From NCBI RefSeq assembly GCF_041260155.1, contig NC_091946.1:21965853-22029852 (forward strand): a stretch of 64,000 nt of DNA. Direction: 5' to 3'. Position 1 is the stretch's first letter; each line of letters begins with the position of its first letter. Of the stretch, positions 191 to 54,420 are shown one piece after another. The position numbers and the translations under genes were made by a program. This stretch comes from Ptychodera flava. Taxonomy: Eukaryota > Hemichordata > Enteropneusta > Ptychoderidae. A model generated the notes under the pieces. It did not search any database. It saw only the letters and a list, made by a program, of their open reading frames with translations, and was not told the DNA's origin.

Positions 191-1939
191 ACACTATTTC
201 GCCAACTTTCGATAGATGTCCACAAGAGATAACGAAAGTCATAAAAGATGATGAGACACGTACCAATATTACCTGGCAGGTACCAACAGCAAATGACAAT
301 TCGAATAACGTCACTGTACATAGCAGTTATACACCGGGCGATGTCTTCGTTATTGGAACGACAGTTGTAAGATACACAGCTGTTGACTCGTCCAACAACA
401 CTGTGTATTGCCAGTTCAGAGTTAATGTCATTGGTATGTATTACAATAAAAGGTAACTACCTTTTATCACTTGTTCAAAGTGTCTGCTGCAGTATAAATG
501 ACACGAAGACTTTAACACAAGGAGCTCGTCCAACAACACTGTAAATTGCCAATTTAGAGTCAATGCCATCAGTATGTATGACTATATATCACTTGTTCCA
601 AGTGTTTTTTACACAAGAAAGATGTTCTGTCTAGTAATAATCGATAACAATGTCTTTCTGCTTGTCTGTCTGTCTGTCTGTCTGTCGGCTGGCAGGTAGG
701 CAAGCAGGAGGGCAGGGAGGATGGATGGATGGTATGTTTGTTGGTAGGTACGGTAGGTACGCAGGCATGCATTCAGGCTGTTAGGTAGGTAGGTAGGTAG
801 GTAGGTAGGTAGGTAGGTAGGTATGTAGGTTGGTACATAGGCGTAGAGGTAGGTACATATTTTAGTAGGCATGTGCATACATGCAGGCATTTAATTGTTT
901 ACTCTATGTATGCATTTAATTGTTTATGGAGTACATTGGTGATGCTGACACCATGTGTTACTTTCATTTTTGACAGTACAAGAAAAGTTGAAGATTGGTC
1001 TTTCAATCGGGATTCCAATAGTGTGCATCGTTTTCCTTCTTCCGTTATTCTTCTTTCTCGGATACCGGTACCGGTTGCAGTTTTACTTGGTTTTCACAAG
1101 AGACTGGGATATAGACGAAGACCTTGGTAAGAGGTTATTTCTTCTTTATTGTTAATATTCTAGTGAAGTCTCTTTAAAAGGAATGTAGTCGTTTTTGGTC
1201 GATTGGATATTTGCTAGATAGTTTTTTTGCGAAATATTGTCTATCGTATTTCTTTCTTTATCGCTATTCAAGTTATCCAAGAACTATAATCAAGTTAATG
1301 TTAATTTAGTGAATGGTCAATTACCATTTCAGTAAAAGCTGTTTAAAAATTGATAATAACATTAACCTTACCTTATTTGGTAACTTAAAGAGTGCCGATT
1401 TTGCCCTCAAAATATTATAATACTTAAAAGCAGTGATTTTTGAAGAAGAGTCGAGTGGTCACATATTTGTGGGAAAATACGAAAACCATGCAACTACCCG
1501 GGCTTTATACTATTCAGTTGTCTAGTATATCGACGAAAAAATAGTATGTTGTTCTTTGAAATTCTAACATTTAGTGGTCATTTTTTGCTTTGTAACTAAT
1601 AACACTATTATCTACTCTAACCTACTAATCAATGCTTTGAACAATTGCTGCAGAAAGCACAATTATTAGAAACCATCGGTTGAATTTTAAGATGAGAAAA
1701 CAGTATTTATAAAAATCATTAAATTAAGGTTAACCATACGAAACACAATATGTTTCCGTGTTGAAAAATTGGTAATTCCCATAGTCCATATATTTCAAGA
1801 TGATTGAAATTGGTTTCTAATTTTGAAATTTGAAACCGATGTTTTACCGTTTATCATCTTGCTGTCGTTGATTGTCTCTGGCATTCTAAACAAAGTAGGT
1901 ATGTAGGGAACGCTGATTGCTATATATGCTATATATATG

Positions 1940-1982
<43 letters not shown>

Positions 1983-3620
1983 TTAATATACATTTTTAAA
2001 GATATCAGCATAAATACTAAGCCAATGGCTCAAGGCCTTTTAGCAAGAGTAATAGATTTGCTGCCATTCCTGTTCTCATGTTGAAACCTCAGCCTTATTG
2101 CTCGTGTAGTACACTACATTTCAATAACTGAAACAACCGTCATGTGTACGGGAAGCCACACATATTAATGACATCATTCAATAAACAGTTAACTACAAAA
2201 AACATAAAATTTCCGCTGATTTTTGCATGAACGTCTTAGTAACTTGACCTTATGTACCCGACGTTTATTAATAAAGCGCGCCAGGTGGTCTCTCTATCTC
2301 CCTAACTCATGGCTGTGCACGAAAAACAAAATGAAAGAAATTACCATTAAGAGGCCGTATTTGATCATATTGTAAACCATAAGGACACACATATATGTAA
2401 GGTGTATTGTCCATCTGTCGCACTAGAATGAAACCGACTGAGCTATATTTCGGAAAAATCATGCATTGTAAATATAAAAATATACTTTATACAGCCGTAC
2501 CAGTTGTCACTCGGGTATGTAATGTGCATTAAACAAGTTATCATGCGTGTTTATAGTGTTGTCTTGTGCATTTACAGTGTTGTCTTAAGTACTACGGATG
2601 TTTCCTTCGGCTTTTGAAAAAATGTCCTGCGCATGATATTATGTAACTGTTGTTTTAAAATGAAAAATTCGATTCAATTCAGCTTTTCCTGAAAATATTT
2701 GCTCCCCTCATACCATCAAAGCATTTCGAAGGGGTTTAATGGACGAAAGTGTAACATCGTTTAATTTGCAGGTGACAAGGACTATGACGGATTCCTATCG
2801 TACAGTAGCAAAGATGGAGACTTCGCCGAAGCAATCATGAAGAATCTTGAAAAGAATGGAAAATTCAAACTATTGCTACATCACAGAGACTTTATAGCCG
2901 GGAAGGGTAAGTAGACATTTGTTAATTCGATATTGTCATACCTTTCTACAAAATGAAATGTGTTTATAAGTGATTTCACGATGTGTATACATGTGTCACT
3001 CAGTGAGTTTGTTTCTGAAGTAGCCAGCGTTGTGAAATTAAGAAAAACGTAATTTATTGTCGAGCGAGGATATTTTCAGTCACCGCTTAAACATATGATT
3101 GTGGCTTGATCAGTGATTAAAATTGTTTCATTTTCCGTAAGAAAGAGGGTCCTGTAGCACACTTTTTCAAAGCACACGGGTTTTTATTAATTTTTTTGTT
3201 ACTTTCTCCAACTAAACAGGGATTCTCGACAATATCGAAGATTCGTTTGATAACAGTCGTGCCGCGATCTTGGTCATCTCTCCGAATTTCCTCGAGAGTG
3301 GCACATGTGAACACGAGGCAAGAATTGCCCTGGATAACTGGATCAACAGAAGACAGAAACTGATTCCGATTGTAAAGGGGAACGTCGAACAGGCAAACAA
3401 CTCCCAAGTGATCAAGCGGATTATGAAATTCATAACATACATTCAATGGCCTGAGAATGCTTCAGCGAAAGAAGAAGACGCATTTTGGAGAGAGCTTGAA
3501 AACGCCCTGGATATAAATATGCAAAGGCAAACAAGGGTGGCTTCATTTACAAGGGCATTAGCAAACGTGTTCAGATGTGGGAGAAATGGTTACTCTAGAG
3601 TCAGAAATCATGTCGTTTGA
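191..3620 (+). CDS. HYR-transmembrane-TIR receptor, 3' part (partial gene)
   Basis: Four exons join in phase 1: 191-433, 977-1126, 2772-2906 and 3220-3620 (stop TGA 3618-3620). Exon 191-433 is a complete 81-codon HYR (hyalin repeat) module, beginning DTISPTFDRCPQEI and ending with the typical FVIGTTVVRYTAVDSSNN and YCQFRVNV strands. Exon 977-1126 gives a single membrane helix (IGIPIVCIVFLLPLFFFLGY) followed by a basic juxtamembrane stretch. The last two exons encode a TIR domain: box 1 YDGFLSYSSKD, box 2 HHRDFIAGKGILDNI, then AAILVISPNFLESGTC with a following E-H-E, and box 3 FWREL. A short basic tail follows. TIR domains of this type signal by TIR-TIR contacts or, in the SARM1 branch, cleave NAD; nothing here decides which. 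The N-terminal ectodomain lies left of the window, so start and total length are unknown. The BB-loop position that is proline in most Toll-like receptors is alanine. The HYR-TM-TIR order suggests a cell-surface innate immune receptor; this role is inferred. Confidence 0.88.
387..606 (+). repeat. Tandem duplication of the end of the HYR exon
   Basis: The last ~50 bases of the HYR exon plus its donor and downstream intron (about 387-483) recur at about 523-606 with roughly 85% identity by eye. The second copy keeps CTCGTCCAACAACACTGT and a donor-like AGTATGTAT but has no acceptor or exon start, and it reads into a stop. It looks like a small local duplication, not a usable exon. Confidence 0.7.
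655..870. repeat. Tetranucleotide microsatellites (CTGT)n and (GGTA)n
   Basis: Runs of CTGT (about 662-686), GGAT (about 717-732) and TAGG/GGTA (about 780-835) sit side by side in the HYR-TIR intron. The long Pro-Thr-Tyr readings on the opposite strand are by-products of these repeats and are not called as genes. Confidence 0.9.
1127..2771. other. Intron between TM and TIR exons
   Basis: This 1.6 kb intron has a GTAAGA donor and a TTTGCAG acceptor. It contains a (TA)n microsatellite around 1920-1979 and otherwise AT-rich sequence with no exon, RNA gene or recognisable element that I can see. Confidence 0.7.
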
Positions 3621-3635
3621 GCCAAAATTGTTTCG

Positions 3636-3959
3636 TTAAAGGGACAAATTCGGCCATTTTCATGAATTGTCTTTGATACGAGACACTATTTATATCGTTC
3701 GATATGTTCAAAGATAATGAATGGTGACCATGCATATATTCGACCCCGTTTTTAGAGACGATACGTGAAACCAACACGAGAAAGTATTAATGGTCAAGAC
3801 CATTTATTCTTTCTAGCGATGGTTTCATTAAATTTATCTAAAACCGGGGTCGAATATATTCATCGTCACCCATTCATTATCTTTGAACATGTCGAACGAT
3901 ATAAATAGTGTCTCGTATCAAACAAAATTCATGAAAAATGGCCGACTTTGTCCCTTTAA
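3636..3959. mobile_element. Foldback MITE with TTAA ends, in the presumed 3' UTR of the receptor
   Basis: Two arms of about 120 bp (3640-3760 and 3838-3955) are near-perfect reverse complements: each reads inward from AGGGACAAA through GATACGAGACACTATTTATA and TTCAAAGATAATGAATG to TTCGACCCCG. TTAA lies at both ends (3636-3639 and 3956-3959), fitting a TTAA target duplication. There is no coding capacity. The element starts 16 bp after the stop codon, so a transcript crossing it would form a long hairpin. An ATTAAA hexamer in its central loop (3827-3832) is the first plausible polyadenylation signal after the stop; an AATAAA follows at 4289-4294. Confidence 0.85.
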
Positions 3960-4439: not shown

Positions 4440-5260
4440 GTAACAAATACATTTGGAAGGACTTTTTGTAGACGCTTAGCGATACATTTGATGACACTAG
4501 AGAAGACGCACAGACTATACAAGGAGCTGTGTAACGACAATTTAAGATAACAACAAACTTGTTGTATAGAGACATCTTCACACACGAGTTTAACGTAGGT
4601 AATTTTACGCCCAAATGGGACCTTTGTGATCTTTGCATAAGACACAAACACAGTTCAGAAATAGAAAAAAGACCTGAAGAAAAACCGAAAAGACCAACAA
4701 AAAGATAAAACCTTTAGCAGTCGAGAAAAAGATGGAGGTTATGCGGCTTCCTTTGATTTGGAGAAGGTGTTACCAATGCGTATTAGTGATCTGTCCGTAT
4801 TCTATTATAAATGTAAACTCTCCATTTACAACTTGAGGGTATATAACATTGGGAACAAAGAGGGTCACGATCACTGCCACATACAGCACGACGGGATAGC
4901 TTCCAATGGATCCAATAAAATATCGTCAAATCGTGTGTACAAATCCGTAAAGGAGAGGTCAGGTAAGAGGATTACCAAATTTGTATTATATTCTGACAAT
5001 ATCGCTAGCCAAAACAGTAACAGGTTCATCGTTGATACGTGTATGAAAGGTTTGAAAGAAACGAATTTAATGTTGACATAATCCCTCACAAATTTCTGAA
5101 AGGGGGAACACCCATAATGAAGTTGATAGCATGCATGCATTTGTCGCAAAAGCAAATGATTATAATCCAATAGTTTATTCTCCGGATCACTGCTATTTTT
5201 GGCAAGAAAAAAATGGAATTGAGCCCATCATATACATATCGCGGTTCAAAATGGTAAGGC
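4440..5260 (+). pseudogene. Decayed transposase-like gene (DUF7869-type relic)
   Basis: Conceptual pieces in different frames recall the family of multi-copy animal proteins annotated as DUF7869 or transposase-domain, which carry a C-x-x-C region and a DDE-like segment. In order: IFTHEFNVGNFTPKWDLCDL with a CDLC pair (about 4572-4640), FDLEKVLPM (about 4755), VFYYKCKLSIYNL (about 4795), HDGIASNGSNKISS (about 4890), LYSDNIASQNSNRF (about 4986), HKFLKGG (about 5090) and a histidine/asparagine-rich stretch ending YNPIVYSPDHCYF (about 5160-5205). Family members typically read LYSDNCGGQN then HKFLE-GHT-ME-DS, so the order matches. At least three frame breaks and internal stops separate the pieces and I see no start codon or terminal repeats, so it is a dead copy. 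Family naming rests on remembered motif patterns. Confidence 0.6.
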
Positions 5261-5539
5261 TTGATTTCAGTCGAGGAAAAGTAATACTCGATGTCAGAAA
5301 TATCGCTGTCCGAACTCTCCAAGCTCCAATCGTCTGTATCGCCGATAATGTCAGGCACGCTCGTCCCATGAGCCCTTTCGCGCCCATGGAATTCCTAGCT
5401 CATTTTCATAAATGCTGTCTACTTCAACTTCTCTTTTCGTCGCGCCGTAGTCGTCAGCGCATGCAATTATGTTGCAAATTTGAAATGCATTTTATTCAAG
5501 GGTTCTATCAGCAGGGATAAATGATGAAATTCGCAGGAC

Positions 5540-6340: not shown

Positions 6341-7069
6341 AATCTGTGGTGAACATTGTTCATTATGTTGATCATAACACTTTCAATGAAGTTGCAAACA
6401 TGTGGCAAAGGTTCGAATTTACACATAACTGCAATATATAATGAAACACGTGAGCACTTTCGGTTCATATCTGGTTAAAGTGACAGAAATAAAAAATGTG
6501 CACATTTTGAGCCAAACAAACACATGCACAAAGGTTTCAAAATATTCTCACACAATTTTTGTAATCTTCAACTACTGAGCTAACAAAATGTATACTACAT
6601 ATCGGGTGTATAGATTCATTCTTACGGTTAAGAATCAGTTTCAAGAGAAGAGTCTGTGAACGTGGTTCTCCATGAATTAGTGTTGTGATATCATCCGTGA
6701 AATTCAAACATGTAGTAACTGATCAACTCACCAAAATTAATATTTATTCAAACCATTTACGCCGGATTATTCAATTGTTGTAAATTTACAGATTTATTGC
6801 AACCTACTTGCTGAAAATGATACAGACTTTAAAACAGTTTTAAAATTTACAAAATCTTTTAAGGCGTTGCAATTACTTGTCATAATATTTACAGAATCTA
6901 TTACTACCTGTGATTCAAAATCAAGGGGGCACATTACTTACTGTGCTGTGTGGAAACAAAACAGAGGGAAATTTTGACATTTATTTTGTAATATGAATGA
7001 AACATGAGTACAAGTATGTTACCATAATATTTTTTCCATTGTGCTGTAAGATTTCCTTCCCGTTTCACA
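6341..7069. other. Non-coding stretch
   Basis: AT-rich sequence with no exon-like reading frame, repeat or RNA gene that I can support. Confidence 0.5.
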
Positions 7070-7549
7070 AATAACTCCAATAACTATATGAAGGGCAATA
7101 ACTCCAATAACTAAATGAAGGGCAATAACTCCAATAACTAAATGAAGGGCAATAACTCCAATAACTAAATGAAGGGCAATGACTGCAATAACTAAATGAA
7201 GGGCAATAACTCCAATAACTAAATGACGGCCAATAACTCCAATAACTAAATGAAGGGCAATAACTCCAATAACTAAGTGAAGGGCAATAACTAAATGAAG
7301 GGCAATAACTCCAATAACTAAATGAAGGGCAATATCTCCAATAACTAAATGAAGGTCAATAACTCGAATAACTACATGAAGGGCAATAACTCCAATAACT
7401 AAATGAAGGGCAATAACTCCAATAACTAAATGAAGGGCAATAACTCCAATAACTAAATGAAGGGCAATAACTCCAATAACTAAATGAACGGCCATAACTC
7501 CAATAACTAAATGAAGGGCAATATCTCCAATAACTAAATGAAGGGCAAT
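7070..7549. repeat. 27-bp minisatellite, about 18 units
   Basis: The unit is AATAACTCCAATAACTAAAT followed by GAAGGGC (27 bp). Units are nearly identical, with a few point variants and one shortened unit near 7280-7295. Because 27 is divisible by three, the minus strand stays open for 177 codons reading ALHLVIGVI over and over. That frame has no sign of being a gene: the flanks do not continue it and the peptide is just the translated repeat. Confidence 0.95.
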
Positions 7550-9424
7550 CAAACTTTAAATTGTATTTAAAAGTCCCAATGTAAAGAAAAGTTACACTTG
7601 TTCCGATTGGGTTCGAGAATAGCAATTTGACTCTGTGGGGCTCTGATTGAGAAAGGAGTTTAAAAACTTGCAAAGGAAAAATTCACTGCTAAATTTATCA
7701 AAATAGAGATAGTCTTAAACCCATACCAATTATTCTAAAACATGGCACATTTCTAAATGAATGATCTTATGAATTCTTTCAATTGATCAGAGTACAGTTA
7801 CCTACAATGATGTTTAAATTAAAACTGATTATTTTTCACTATTTTACATGTTCCAAAGCTCGTTTTAAAGTGAAGACATTTTGTCATCAATATCAAAATC
7901 TACAGGCAGATACAATGCAGGGCCCTTTATGACGCTGTTGAAAATATATTGAAGCTGCACATCACTTGATTCATAATTTTGATCATAACTCACTAAATAA
8001 AATTTATCTTTGAGGGACATGATCCTTTTCCCTCTATATCAGTAAATTCATATGCAAGCCATCATGGATACTCTTTTAAAATAACAAGCATCTCGAAAAA
8101 TTTAGTCACTCACTGAGAATAAAACTTGGTCACAACCTAAGAAAACTTGCTTCAACAAGTAATGACATGTGAGTCCCACTCTGCCTCTCAGAAACATGGT
8201 TCATTTCTACGTTCATTTCCATGTTTTTTGAACTATATTTGTTTGATATTTTCATTGCATTATTGTTACCAAGAACGAAAGCTGTCATTCCGATGCAGAG
8301 TAGCGAAAACACATCAAGCAAAAATTAAATTTACAAGCCGACTAATTCATGAATTTACAATACTCGTCGCCAGATTTTTTGTGGCCATTCACTGGGATGC
8401 TACTGCCTAAATGGAATCTCCATGTTCATGGCAATTTAACCTTCCATGTTGTAGATTTACTCGTAAATATAAACGGCAAATTAGATGCTTTAAAAATGTT
8501 CATCGATTACAAACAACAACTTGTGTTTTTTCTTTCCAACACTGTAATGTACACCATTTTTCTTATTAAATATGATTATCTTTTTATGTACATTGTCAAA
8601 TATCTTTGGAGGGTTTGATTTTAGAGTAGACATGTTTAAAGGAATGAGTAAAAATATTTTTAATTTCAGACATTCACTAGAGCTCATTTATCATGTTTCA
8701 TATCAATTGAAAACACATACAACATTGATTTGTTTGTTATTTTCACTTGGAAATGCACCGATTGTGTGAAGCAGACATGGGCCTGTGGCCTGTGTCATAT
8801 CTGATCACATAAATCTGATTTAGTTTGATATTGTCCATACTAAAAGCAAACAGATATCAACATGGAAGTAGCCGTACAATGTTAGAAGGCTTTTAACAAA
8901 TGCCTAAATGTGTTAGCACATAACCGAATATATGTTATATTTTAGCAAGAAGCTGAACAGATATGCCACTAATATTGAGCGTGAATATATCGTAAAAATG
9001 AAGTTTTATATCTACCCATGGAATATTGTCATATATTTCACAACCGTTGACAAATGAAAATGACAATGTATACACATGTAAATTTATGCCAATACATGAA
9101 ACCTTTCTGAAAAACAGCGTTTTTGTAAAAATAGTTGACAAAATATTATCATCAAATTAGTAAGCTTCAGTATTACATTTTCTTCTCAACAAACAAATCA
9201 TGAGAGAATTTTTTACAAAAGAAGAGTACTGAAGATTGATTTCTCTAAAACTGACATTTTTTTGTTCAATTTAAAAGATTGCTTAATTCAGAGAAGGATA
9301 TCCTATTTATAAACACAAAGATATACATGAAGTCAAATAAAGTCTTGAAAATTATTTTCTTGTGGTTTTTCCTTTCTGTTATTTCTATTGGGTCTCTTCT
9401 TTGTCATTATGTAAGTCAGCAACT
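7550..9424. other. Non-coding stretch left of ANKRD42
   Basis: No exon with flanking splice sites and conserved protein sequence is visible on either strand. Short open frames (for example 8147-8410 and 8349-8618, plus) are low-complexity and unrelated to anything I recognise. Confidence 0.5.
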
Positions 9425-10037: not shown

Positions 10038-34025
<23,988 letters not shown>

Positions 34026-36531: not shown

Positions 36532-38669
36532 ATGGACACGCTATGGATTGTCCTTGTGGTGATCCGGGTACTTTGGACACTGCTGCCCCAAACAGGATTT
36601 GTTTATCCCGATGAATTCTTCCAGAATCCAGAAGTTATGGCAGGTGAGGTAAAATATTTAGAGGCCAGAATCATATCAACAGGTTCTCCCTAGGTTCTGC
36701 AATCAGCATTATGAATTATAGAACTGGTCTTGATTCTTGTAATAACTGTGAATTCACTTATTTCTCGTGAACTTGTGACTGTTCTTATAAAAAATACATG
36801 TGTGGTTAAAGAGAAGGGGTTATTTGGTCAATGCTCAAAGGTCAAATTGGACTCATTGACCAACGTTAACACTGTATGCCAGGTACGTTGGCGATTGATG
36901 AAAGTTAAAATACGTTTGTCATGATGTACATAGTAAACTGTAAACTTTGCAGCTATATTGACTATAGTTTATGATCACCATTCTGTTGTCATTTTCTCTT
37001 TATGAGCCATGTGTCCTTGCATATTTCAGGCAGCATCTTCGGATTTGATGTCTACATTCCCTGGGAATTTAACGATCAGCTGCCATGTCGAAATGTCATC
37101 TTTCCCTTCCTGACAAGCGGAATTCCATTCCTTATTCTGAAGACGATGAGACTGTTCATCCCAAGCATTGTGACCACCTACACACTCATGGTCTTTCCGA
37201 GACTCTTCATGCTCTCGCTGTCATTCATCATCGACTACTGCGTGTACAAATCCTGCAGAGCTCTGAATCTGAATCCGAAACCAACCCTGGTAGTGCTAGC
37301 CAGCTCCTTCGTCACACTGGTGTTCCACTGTCGCACTTTTTCAAATACCATCGAGTCGATCCTTTTCGCGCTTTTACTGACAGTAGTTATACATGTGCAT
37401 GGGAGGTTTGCAAGAGACGGAAACTGCACCTCTGCAAAGGACACTCCAGATGAGGATGTTTTATCCAAAGTCAAGCAAGCAACCTCTGCAGTCGCAGTCA
37501 TAACAACATTTGGCTTTTTCAACAGACCAACTTTCCTTCTTTTTGCCTTGTGCCCTATTTCCTATCTAGTTTATGTCATCTGTCAGAGATCTTCAGCAGT
37601 GAATGTAGCCAGTTTATTACCCGCAGCAATAGCTACCATCTTTTCAGCAAGTCTCTGCATTTTGGCAGATTCACTATATTACGAGTCAGATTTGCTGTTT
37701 GTTTTATCGTACGGTGTTTACGATTTCTCTTTTGGCGACATCCTCAGAGATATCATAATCACACCATTTAATTTTATTGCATATAATGCTGACAATACCA
37801 ACTTAATAGAACAGGGTATCCATAGTTACTACACTCATATCCTTTTCAACATCCCCATTCTTTTTCTTCCTTTGATAGTGAACTTGGTATCAAATTTGCT
37901 GCACTCTGACAGACATGGCATATTTTTCAGGAAGATTGATGCGATTGTGATATTTTTGGTTCTCTCTGTGGCTGTGCCCGTCGTTCTACTCTCAGTGTTT
38001 CCACACCAAGAGACAAGGTTTTTGATTCCACTGCTAGTCGCACTCAGTCTGTTGTTTGCCAAAGTAAACCAAAAGCTTTCTAAGGCCTTCAAAGTGGCAT
38101 GGCTTCTCTGGAATCTGATTGGTTGCTTCAGTTTCGGTGTTCTCCATGAAGGCGGAGTTGTCCAATCTGTGGACCACATCAGATCAATGATGATGAATAA
38201 CAACAATGTAACCATGTATGACTTTGTCTTCTACCATACCTACACTCCTCCAAAGCATTTATTTGCATATGATCCGTACGGAACCAATCAGAATACAAGG
38301 CAGGGTCATGTGATGGGACAGTCTGCCAATCAGATTTCCAGAAACCCTCTCATGACAATTCACAGCCTTCCTAGTGTAGAATATCCACACCTTCGTCAAA
38401 CTATAAACAGGTTGGTCAGTCAACACCTTCCAGAGGACAAATATGCCCTGTACGTTGTGGCACCATCAACATTGCATCATTTATTCTGCATGCAAAACAG
38501 TAAATACAAATTTAACATCCAAAATAAATTCAACCTTCACTTTCCATTCTCTGACTTTCCAGGTTTAAAGGCCAATGTCAGCTGTGAAGGAAAACAGGAG
38601 GAACATAACCTTGTGACTTTTTTCACACAGAATGTTTCCTTAAATCTTTATAAGATTGATTTATTATAA
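36532..38669 (+). CDS. PIGZ: GPI mannosyltransferase 4 (SMP3/PIG-Z)
   Basis: Two exons: 36532-36643 and 37030-38669 (donor CAG|GTGAGG, acceptor ATTTCAG), giving 583 aa; human PIGZ is 579. The enzyme is an ER multi-pass GT22-family mannosyltransferase that uses dolichol-phosphate mannose to add the fourth, side-branch mannose to the GPI core. Visible evidence: an N-terminal helix (WIVLVVIRVLWTLLP), the catalytic acidic motif TGFVYPDEFFQNPEVMAG (D27, E28) in the first luminal loop, then PWEFN, RNVIFPFLTSG and many hydrophobic helices. The conserved HQETRFLIPL (H363 onward) is the GT22 H-x-E-x-R-F motif. The C-terminal ~190 residues are less conserved luminal/cytosolic sequence ending NLYKIDLL. 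The start ATG is the first in frame before the DE motif. Downstream in-frame ATGs would lose it. The gene looks intact and is transcribed away from ANKRD42 and towards BCS1L. Confidence 0.96.
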
Positions 38670-43549: not shown

Positions 43550-54013
<10,464 letters not shown>

Positions 54014-54420
54014 GTCTATTTCTGTAGCCTTCTCTGAGGCAAAGTCTGAACGAGTTTACACATACGAAGCCGATTAAAGTTTCGTTTCCCGAACAATTAA
54101 TTCAGGATTTACATAAACTTACTGCGGGAGTTGTATTTGTATCTGATAGTAAGTACGACTGATATATAATCCCATCTCTTACGACAAGGACTGCCTATTT
54201 ATCAGAAGTCGTGGCCCATCGTAGTATCATTAAACTCGACAAAGCGGAAAAGCGTGGATTGAAAGCGTGCGCTCGCAATGGAGGCGGCCATTTTGAAGAG
54301 CACAGGGTATGAGGTCATAGGTCAAATTACAACTGTATTAACAATAATATCCATAATTTCATTATTTTTGTAACATTAAAAATGACGTTTCAAATTTTGA
54401 GACTAATACTTTAATTTCAG
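54014..54420. promoter_or_regulatory. BCS1L promoter region with a possible divergent start
   Basis: CG-containing words cluster at 54225-54310. On the plus strand ATGGAGGCGGCCATTTTGAA (54278 on) is a short open piece ending at a donor-like GG|GTATGAG (54307). It contains GGCGGCCATTTTG, close to the YY1 site (GCCGCCATNTTG). It may be a YY1-type promoter element, the first exon of a divergent gene, or both. I found no matching downstream exon in the window. Confidence 0.4.

What the first reader, a model, noticed from the sequence alone, without database searches (positions are those of the whole stretch)
191..3620. HYR-TM-TIR receptor with an alanine BB loop
The exons give one HYR module, a membrane helix and a TIR domain in a single phase-1 chain, an architecture less usual than LRR-TIR or Ig-TIR. 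The BB-loop reads RDFIAGKGI where Toll-like receptors normally have RDxxPG. Loss of that proline in TLR4 blocks signalling, so this receptor may use different partners or an enzymatic (NAD-cleaving) mode. Phase 1-1 HYR exons can be shuffled and multiplied easily, so the missing N-terminus may hold many HYR units and vary between individuals.
Basis: partly seen in the sequence, partly recalled or inferred. Interest (0 to 1): 0.72.

Follow-up and report, generated by a model that had tools for sequence, protein, structure and literature searches.

The report
HYR-domain receptor with Toll-like tail
An animal gene, cut off at its front end by the window edge, appears to join an extracellular HYR module through one membrane helix to a Toll-receptor-like signalling domain whose key loop carries an alanine, a swap already known in human TLR3 and in an amphioxus Toll-like receptor.

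Summary
Four exons (191-433, 977-1126, 2772-2906, 3220-3620) join in phase 1 to give HYR, membrane helix, TIR, stop. The BB loop is RDFIAG; the alanine codon GCC (2897-2899) is one base from a proline codon.

Different adaptor preference is reasonable but not new in kind: TLR3 has this alanine and avoids MyD88, and an amphioxus TLR with it failed to signal in human cells. Against that, human TLR2 P681A keeps partial MyD88 recruitment, and another amphioxus TLR without the proline is reported to work with MyD88. The receptor keeps the other two residues that separate MyD88-dependent TLRs from TLR3. NAD cleavage has little support: the TIR resembles TLR2 (E 2e-19), SARM1 scores E 0.7-1, and the Trp of WxxxE is Thr. 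A variable HYR array is untestable: the window starts 190 bases before the exon and no genome is held.

My paper searches found no HYR-TIR receptor, but the library is partial. Verdict: a real, mildly unusual TIR-receptor variant.

The parts
191..433 (+). Exon (phase 1-1, 243 nt) encoding one HYR module, presumably extracellular, with three N-glycosylation sequons and one cysteine near each end
   Evidence: Splice sites and phase; Pfam HYR E 1e-18; sequons and cysteines
977..1126 (+). Exon (phase 1-1, 150 nt) encoding the juxtamembrane segment, membrane helix and cytoplasmic linker
   Evidence: Splice sites; hydropathy peak 2.7
2772..2906 (+). Exon (phase 1-1, 135 nt) encoding the first part of the TIR domain, box 1 YDGFLSYSSKD to the BB loop RDFIAGK
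   Evidence: Splice sites; Pfam TIR_2/TIR; TLR2 alignment
2897..2899 (+). GCC codon for the BB-loop alanine (proline 681 in human TLR2)
   Evidence: Mapping; alignment to TLR2 chain 1fyw
3220..3620 (+). Last exon: remainder of the TIR domain, box 3 FW, C-terminal tail, stop TGA 3618-3620
   Evidence: Acceptor and stop; Pfam
3315..3317 (+). Glutamate codon aligned with the Glu of TLR2 WCKYE, taken (from recall) as the position of the TIR NADase glutamate; the tryptophan four residues before it is threonine (codon starts 3303)
   Evidence: alignment to TLR2. The SARM1 alignment itself was not displayed

Best explanation
This is the C-terminal half of a single-pass (type I) animal TIR receptor whose extracellular part, as far as it lies in the window, is an HYR module instead of leucine-rich repeats or Ig domains. 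The HYR ectodomain most likely binds a surface or matrix ligand. Ligand-driven clustering brings the TLR2/1/6-type TIR domains together, and they recruit TIR adaptors by scaffolding rather than by enzymatic activity. The BB-loop alanine most likely weakens or re-tunes MyD88 binding, as in human TLR2 P681A, or favours another adaptor, as in TLR3 and possibly amphioxus BlTLR. Shown: exons, phases, domains, alanine, TIR class. Inferred: one transcript, surface location, ligand, adaptor. The animal is not identified; an invertebrate deuterostome is a guess.
For: Phase-matched exons on one strand. Pfam HYR and TIR above curated cut-offs. Best solved relatives are TLR2 (2e-19), TLR1 (2.5e-18), TLR15 (9.9e-17) and TLR6 (2.7e-16). 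Of the three residues that separate MyD88-dependent human TLRs from TLR3 (L663, P681, N688 of TLR2), L and N are kept and only P is changed, read off the alignment. TLR2 P681A still recruits MyD88 in part, while L663E and N688A are greatly suppressed (L663E also loses surface expression). The Ala-to-Pro change in TLR3 switches the adaptor from TRIF to MyD88 (secondary citation). Amphioxus BlTLR with Ala gave no NF-kB response in HEK293; a chimera with the human TLR2 TIR did. TRIF-type TIRs appear restricted to gnathostomes, so an invertebrate would need some other partner.
Against: No RNA data; HYR and TIR could in principle be in separate transcripts. The N-terminus is missing, so LRR or other domains upstream are not excluded. 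The alanine rests on one base in one assembly. TLR3 is a weak sequence match (E 0.008), so the shared alanine says nothing about ancestry. Amphioxus BbtTLR1 also lacks the proline but is reported to act with MyD88 on NF-kB, and the BlTLR authors also offer a missing amphioxus co-factor as an explanation. Pfam's TIR_2 model scores slightly better than TIR, and TIR_2 is described as common in bacteria and in novel sea-anemone genes (PMC5094078).
Confidence: 0.55

Rival explanations
1. The alanine is neutral: the receptor signals through MyD88 like an ordinary TLR, and the HYR ectodomain is just one more of the many non-LRR ectodomains joined to TIR in marine animals.
For: TLR2 P681A responded like wild type to a TLR2/6 agonist at high dose. 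L663 and N688 equivalents are kept. Amphioxus BbtTLR1 lacks the proline but is reported to work with MyD88. Amphioxus has 28 TIR domain combinations, 20 of them its own.
Against: Amphioxus BlTLR with Ala failed in HEK293; TLR2 P681A was largely suppressed with two of three ligands.
Confidence: 0.28
2. The TIR domain cleaves NAD+, as in SARM1, and the receptor signals by enzymatic activity.
For: The alpha-C glutamate is present. TIR chain 7uxr_A (bacterial, from recall) and AbTir are weak matches (E 2.3e-4 and 0.16). Pfam CAP12-PCTIR_TIR matches at 1.9e-4, but at 21.9 bits it is below its cut-off of 24.7.
Against: That glutamate is kept in over 70% of all TIRs. SARM1 matches only at E 0.7-1 while TLR2 matches at 2e-19. 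The Trp of WxxxE is Thr, though the Trp is dispensable in TcpC. TLR4 and MyD88 TIRs have no NADase activity, the family not being exhaustively tested.
Confidence: 0.05
3. The HYR exon and the membrane-TIR exons belong to different genes or transcripts, or the gene is a decaying copy.
For: No transcript evidence; a broken partial copy of the HYR exon end lies at 525-586.
Against: Matching phases and good splice sites across a 543-base intron, same strand, and no stops or frameshifts in the four exons.
Confidence: 0.1

Closest known systems
Toll-like receptors TLR2/TLR1/TLR6 (TIR group 3)
   Same: Single membrane helix and a cytoplasmic TIR domain most similar to theirs (E 2e-19 to 2.7e-16); boxes 1 and 3, and the L663 and N688 equivalents, kept
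   Different: HYR instead of leucine-rich repeats in the part seen; BB-loop Ala for Pro; Thr for the Trp four residues before the alpha-C glutamate; Leu for the conserved Cys before box 2
TLR3
   Same: Natural alanine at the same BB-loop position, linked in the literature to TRIF rather than MyD88
   Different: Weak sequence match (E 0.008); TRIF appears restricted to gnathostomes; TLR3 also changes the other two MyD88-linked residues
Amphioxus BlTLR22-like (Branchiostoma lanceolatum)
   Same: An invertebrate deuterostome TIR receptor with the same Pro-to-Ala change
   Different: A TLR with TLR11-family relationship; no HYR mentioned in the passages read
Ig-TIR (IL-1R-like) receptors of sea anemones
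   Same: TIR receptor with LRRs replaced by another extracellular module
   Different: Ig domains instead of HYR
HYR-repeat egg receptor protein EBR1_5 of sea urchins
   Same: Membrane protein with HYR domains
   Different: SEA domain and seven HYR domains; no TIR mentioned in the passage read

Membership tests
Toll-like receptor (LRR-TM-TIR) | Leucine-rich-repeat ectodomain | tested here: inconclusive
   The only ectodomain exon in the window is HYR; the N-terminus is outside the window and no genome is held
Toll-like receptor (LRR-TM-TIR) | Group 3 / TLR-type TIR domain | tested here: met
   Best solved relatives TLR2, TLR1, TLR6; boxes 1 and 3 present. No tree was made
Toll-like receptor (LRR-TM-TIR) | BB-loop proline, described as invariant in MyD88-dependent TLRs | tested here: not met
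   RDFIAG, codon GCC at 2897-2899; the rule is from PMC10161769; amphioxus BbtTLR1 is an apparent exception
IL-1 receptor family (Ig-TM-TIR) | Ig ectodomain | tested here: inconclusive
   HYR, no Ig match at E up to 1 in the part seen; upstream part missing
TIR NADase (SARM1-type) | Catalytic glutamate in helix alpha-C | tested here: met
   Glu codon 3315-3317, placed through the TLR2 alignment; not discriminating, as over 70% of TIRs have it
TIR NADase (SARM1-type) | Tryptophan of the WxxxE motif | tested here: not met
   Thr in its place; in TcpC the Trp is not required
TIR NADase (SARM1-type) | Sequence closer to SARM1 or bacterial NADase TIRs than to TLRs | tested here: not met
   SARM1 E 0.7-1, AbTir 0.16, TLR2 2e-19
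HYR-domain proteins | HYR module | tested here: met
   Pfam HYR E 1e-18, profile positions 5-81 of 81

The most novel reading that the evidence does not exclude
A family of HYR-TIR receptors, built from shuffled phase 1-1 HYR exons, senses microbes or altered extracellular matrix and signals without MyD88 through an adaptor specific to invertebrate deuterostomes. It would have reached by convergence the alanine switch that TLR3 uses for TRIF.
Probability: 0.15. Interest if true: 0.6.

Novelty: new variant of a known kind. Interest (0 to 1): 0.36.

Why it matters
If the gene is expressed as modelled, it adds an HYR ectodomain, of the kind found in a sea urchin egg receptor, to the modules that animals have wired to TIR signalling. 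It also offers a natural test of whether the BB-loop alanine alone redirects adaptor choice in an animal that probably has no TRIF.

Tried and rejected
Relatives by back-translated patterns: viral contigs with the TIR (27 stretches matched a pattern, 0 confirmed) and with the HYR exon (5 matched, 0 confirmed); genome contigs with the TIR (79 matched, 0 confirmed). These are viral and prokaryote collections searched for close relatives only, so this says nothing about animals. Solved structures for HYR: none at E up to 1. The window's own genome: not held. Other TIR or HYR copies in the window: none by single-sequence tblastn at E up to 1, which would miss short or highly diverged copies and did not show the 62-nt partial copy that the DNA comparison found.

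Papers on an HYR-TIR architecture: 44 papers held enough terms, 20 listed; 10, all listed; 28, 20 listed; exact phrases, 0; 57, 30 listed; 1; 32, 20 listed. I judged the listings by title and abstract start, and opened passages of 12 papers in all, plus one whole section of one of them (PMC6224433). None of what I saw described the architecture. The 'hyalin' hits in the Ciona TLR paper are 'hyaline amoebocyte', and the 'HYR' hit in the TIR survey is the mussel name Hyriopsis. One search, on BB-loop proline in invertebrates (164 papers, 15 listed), also listed the amphioxus TLR paper, whose passages I opened in the same turn. Verstak 2013 (TLR3 Ala-to-Pro) is not held; I rely on other papers' statements and references. 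I considered that the partial HYR copy might be a used mini-exon (509-571, open, in phase, GTATGT donor), but by eye its acceptor has no pyrimidine tract, so a relic is more likely. No tree of TIR domains was made, for want of animal sequences. On rechecking, the BbtTLR1 passage made me lower the main confidence from 0.60 to 0.55 and raise the neutral rival from 0.25 to 0.28.

Full report
What is there. The window (64 kb, 31-45% GC by 2-kb window) opens near the 3' half of a plus-strand, intron-containing animal gene. Four exons can be read directly: 191-433, 977-1126, 2772-2906 and 3220-3620. Each internal boundary has a consensus acceptor and donor, the three internal exons are 243, 150 and 135 nt long, and all are phase 1-1. 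Joined, they give 309 positions, the first a cut codon, and end in TGA at 3618-3620 with no internal stop. Pfam finds HYR (E 1e-18 on the exon alone, profile positions 5-81 of 81) and, in the joined chain, TIR_2 (2.2e-18) and TIR (6.8e-17), all above their curated cut-offs. Between them is one strong hydrophobic segment (mean hydropathy 2.7 over 19 residues, against at most 0.75 outside the region). The HYR module has three N-glycosylation sequons and a cysteine near each end, in keeping with an extracellular location.

What is not shown. Nothing upstream of base 191 is available. The window begins 190 bases before the HYR exon, and no whole genome is held for it. Whether there is one HYR module or many, or other ectodomain modules, is open. 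No transcript evidence exists here, so the link from HYR to the membrane exon rests on phase, strand, splice sites and proximity (543-base intron).

The BB loop. The sequence is RDFIAGKGILDN, where TLR2 has RDFIPGKWIIDN (alignment). The alanine codon is GCC at 2897-2899, one base from CCC. The loss-of-function cases that I know are changes to histidine (TLR4, from recall; TLR2 P681H, cited). For alanine, PMC3634009 (abstract and passages) reports that human TLR2 P681A responded like wild type to a TLR2/6 agonist at high dose, was largely suppressed with two other agonists, and recruited MyD88 in proportion. The P681H results that it cites showed no MyD88 recruitment. The same paper names three residues shared by the human TLRs except TLR3: L663, P681 and N688. 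Counting on the printed 1fyw chain, the present receptor keeps the L663 and N688 equivalents and changes only P681. It therefore looks like TLR2 P681A rather than like TLR3.

Precedents. TLR3 carries alanine at this position and uses TRIF, and changing it to proline switches TLR3 to MyD88 (passages of PMC10161769, and PMC7215789, both citing Verstak 2013, which is not held). An invertebrate precedent also exists: the B. lanceolatum receptor BlTLR has alanine here. The full receptor did not activate NF-kB in HEK293 cells, but a chimera with the human TLR2 TIR did. Its authors offer two explanations, a missing amphioxus co-factor or a species-specific adaptor, and link the second to the alanine (PMC6224433, section 22 and passages). 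Against the adaptor reading, the same paper says that BbtTLR1 (78.8% identical to BlTLR) also lacks the proline, yet cites work in which it acts with MyD88 on NF-kB. TRIF-type TIRs appear to be restricted to gnathostomes (PMC7075850 passages). So the idea of different partners is reasonable, already proposed for another receptor, and unproven here.

Enzymatic mode. The alpha-C glutamate is present (3315-3317; placed through the TLR2 alignment, its equivalence to the SARM1 glutamate being recalled), but over 70% of TIR domains have it. The tryptophan of the WxxxE motif is threonine here. PMC11374754 (passages) reports the Trp as essential in AbTir but dispensable in TcpC, so this is suggestive only. 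By sequence the domain is of the TLR2/1/6 class (E 2e-19 to 2.7e-16). SARM1 chains score E 0.7-1, AbTir 0.16 and the TIR chain 7uxr_A 2.3e-4. Pfam's CAP12-PCTIR_TIR model matches at 1.9e-4 but below its cut-off, and TIR_2, described as common in bacteria (PMC5094078 passage), scores slightly better than TIR. [quoted passage not shown] I give the enzymatic reading about 5%.

Architecture. Group 3 TIRs with non-LRR ectodomains are few and include Ig-TIR proteins of sea anemones (PMC7075850; PMC5094078 passages). Amphioxus has 28 TIR domain combinations, 20 of them specific to it, against about six in sea urchin (PMC2575513 passages), so new combinations would not be a surprise in a marine deuterostome. 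I found no paper describing HYR joined to TIR, but several of those listings were capped, the library holds only open-licence papers, and I could search no animal protein database. It may well exist in annotated genomes. Three of seven HYR domains in a sea urchin egg receptor protein show positive selection (PMC5521101 passage), which makes a recognition role plausible for HYR in general.

HYR exon shuffling. The window gives one small hint: the last part of the HYR exon with its donor region (387-448) is repeated at 525-586 at 84% identity, a broken partial duplication inside intron 1. No complete second HYR exon was found in the window.

Conclusion. This is a real TIR-receptor gene model with an uncommon ectodomain and a BB-loop substitution that has precedents. 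It probably works as an adaptor-recruiting receptor with lowered or shifted MyD88 preference. It is a variant of a known kind of receptor, of moderate interest.

Noticed in passing
window 525-586 (and 587-620): Partial tandem copy (84%) of 62 nt spanning the end of the HYR exon and its GTATGT donor, followed by a 34-nt copy (76%) of intron sequence 465-498. A 63-nt in-phase open stretch 509-571 exists, but by eye its acceptor lacks a pyrimidine tract.
   Followed up: partly
window 3636-3959: Foldback element of 324 nt, 86.5% self-complementary, with TTAAAGGGACAAA at both ends, beginning 15 nt past the receptor's stop codon and so probably inside its 3' UTR; no other copy in the window at E up to 1e-3.
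   Followed up: partly
window 4665-5520: Two open stretches, the first with a YSDNIASQNSNRF motif that resembles, from memory, a family of uncharacterised mobile-element proteins of marine invertebrates; no Pfam match.
   Followed up: no
window 36975-38669 (+): Long open frame of an Alg9-like mannosyltransferase (Pfam Glyco_transf_22, E 3.4e-43), perhaps a GPI mannosyltransferase.
   Followed up: partly
window 43550-54055 (-): Three exon-sized matches to a mitochondrial BCS1-like chaperone (two BCS1_N, one BCS1 ATPase lid); useful for identifying the animal.
   Followed up: partly
window 31304-32741 (-): Two open stretches with weak, sub-threshold ankyrin-repeat matches.
   Followed up: no
window 7019-7682 (-): Short tandem repeat whose translations give long repetitive ORFs (ALHLVIGVI-like units), probably not a gene.
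   Followed up: no
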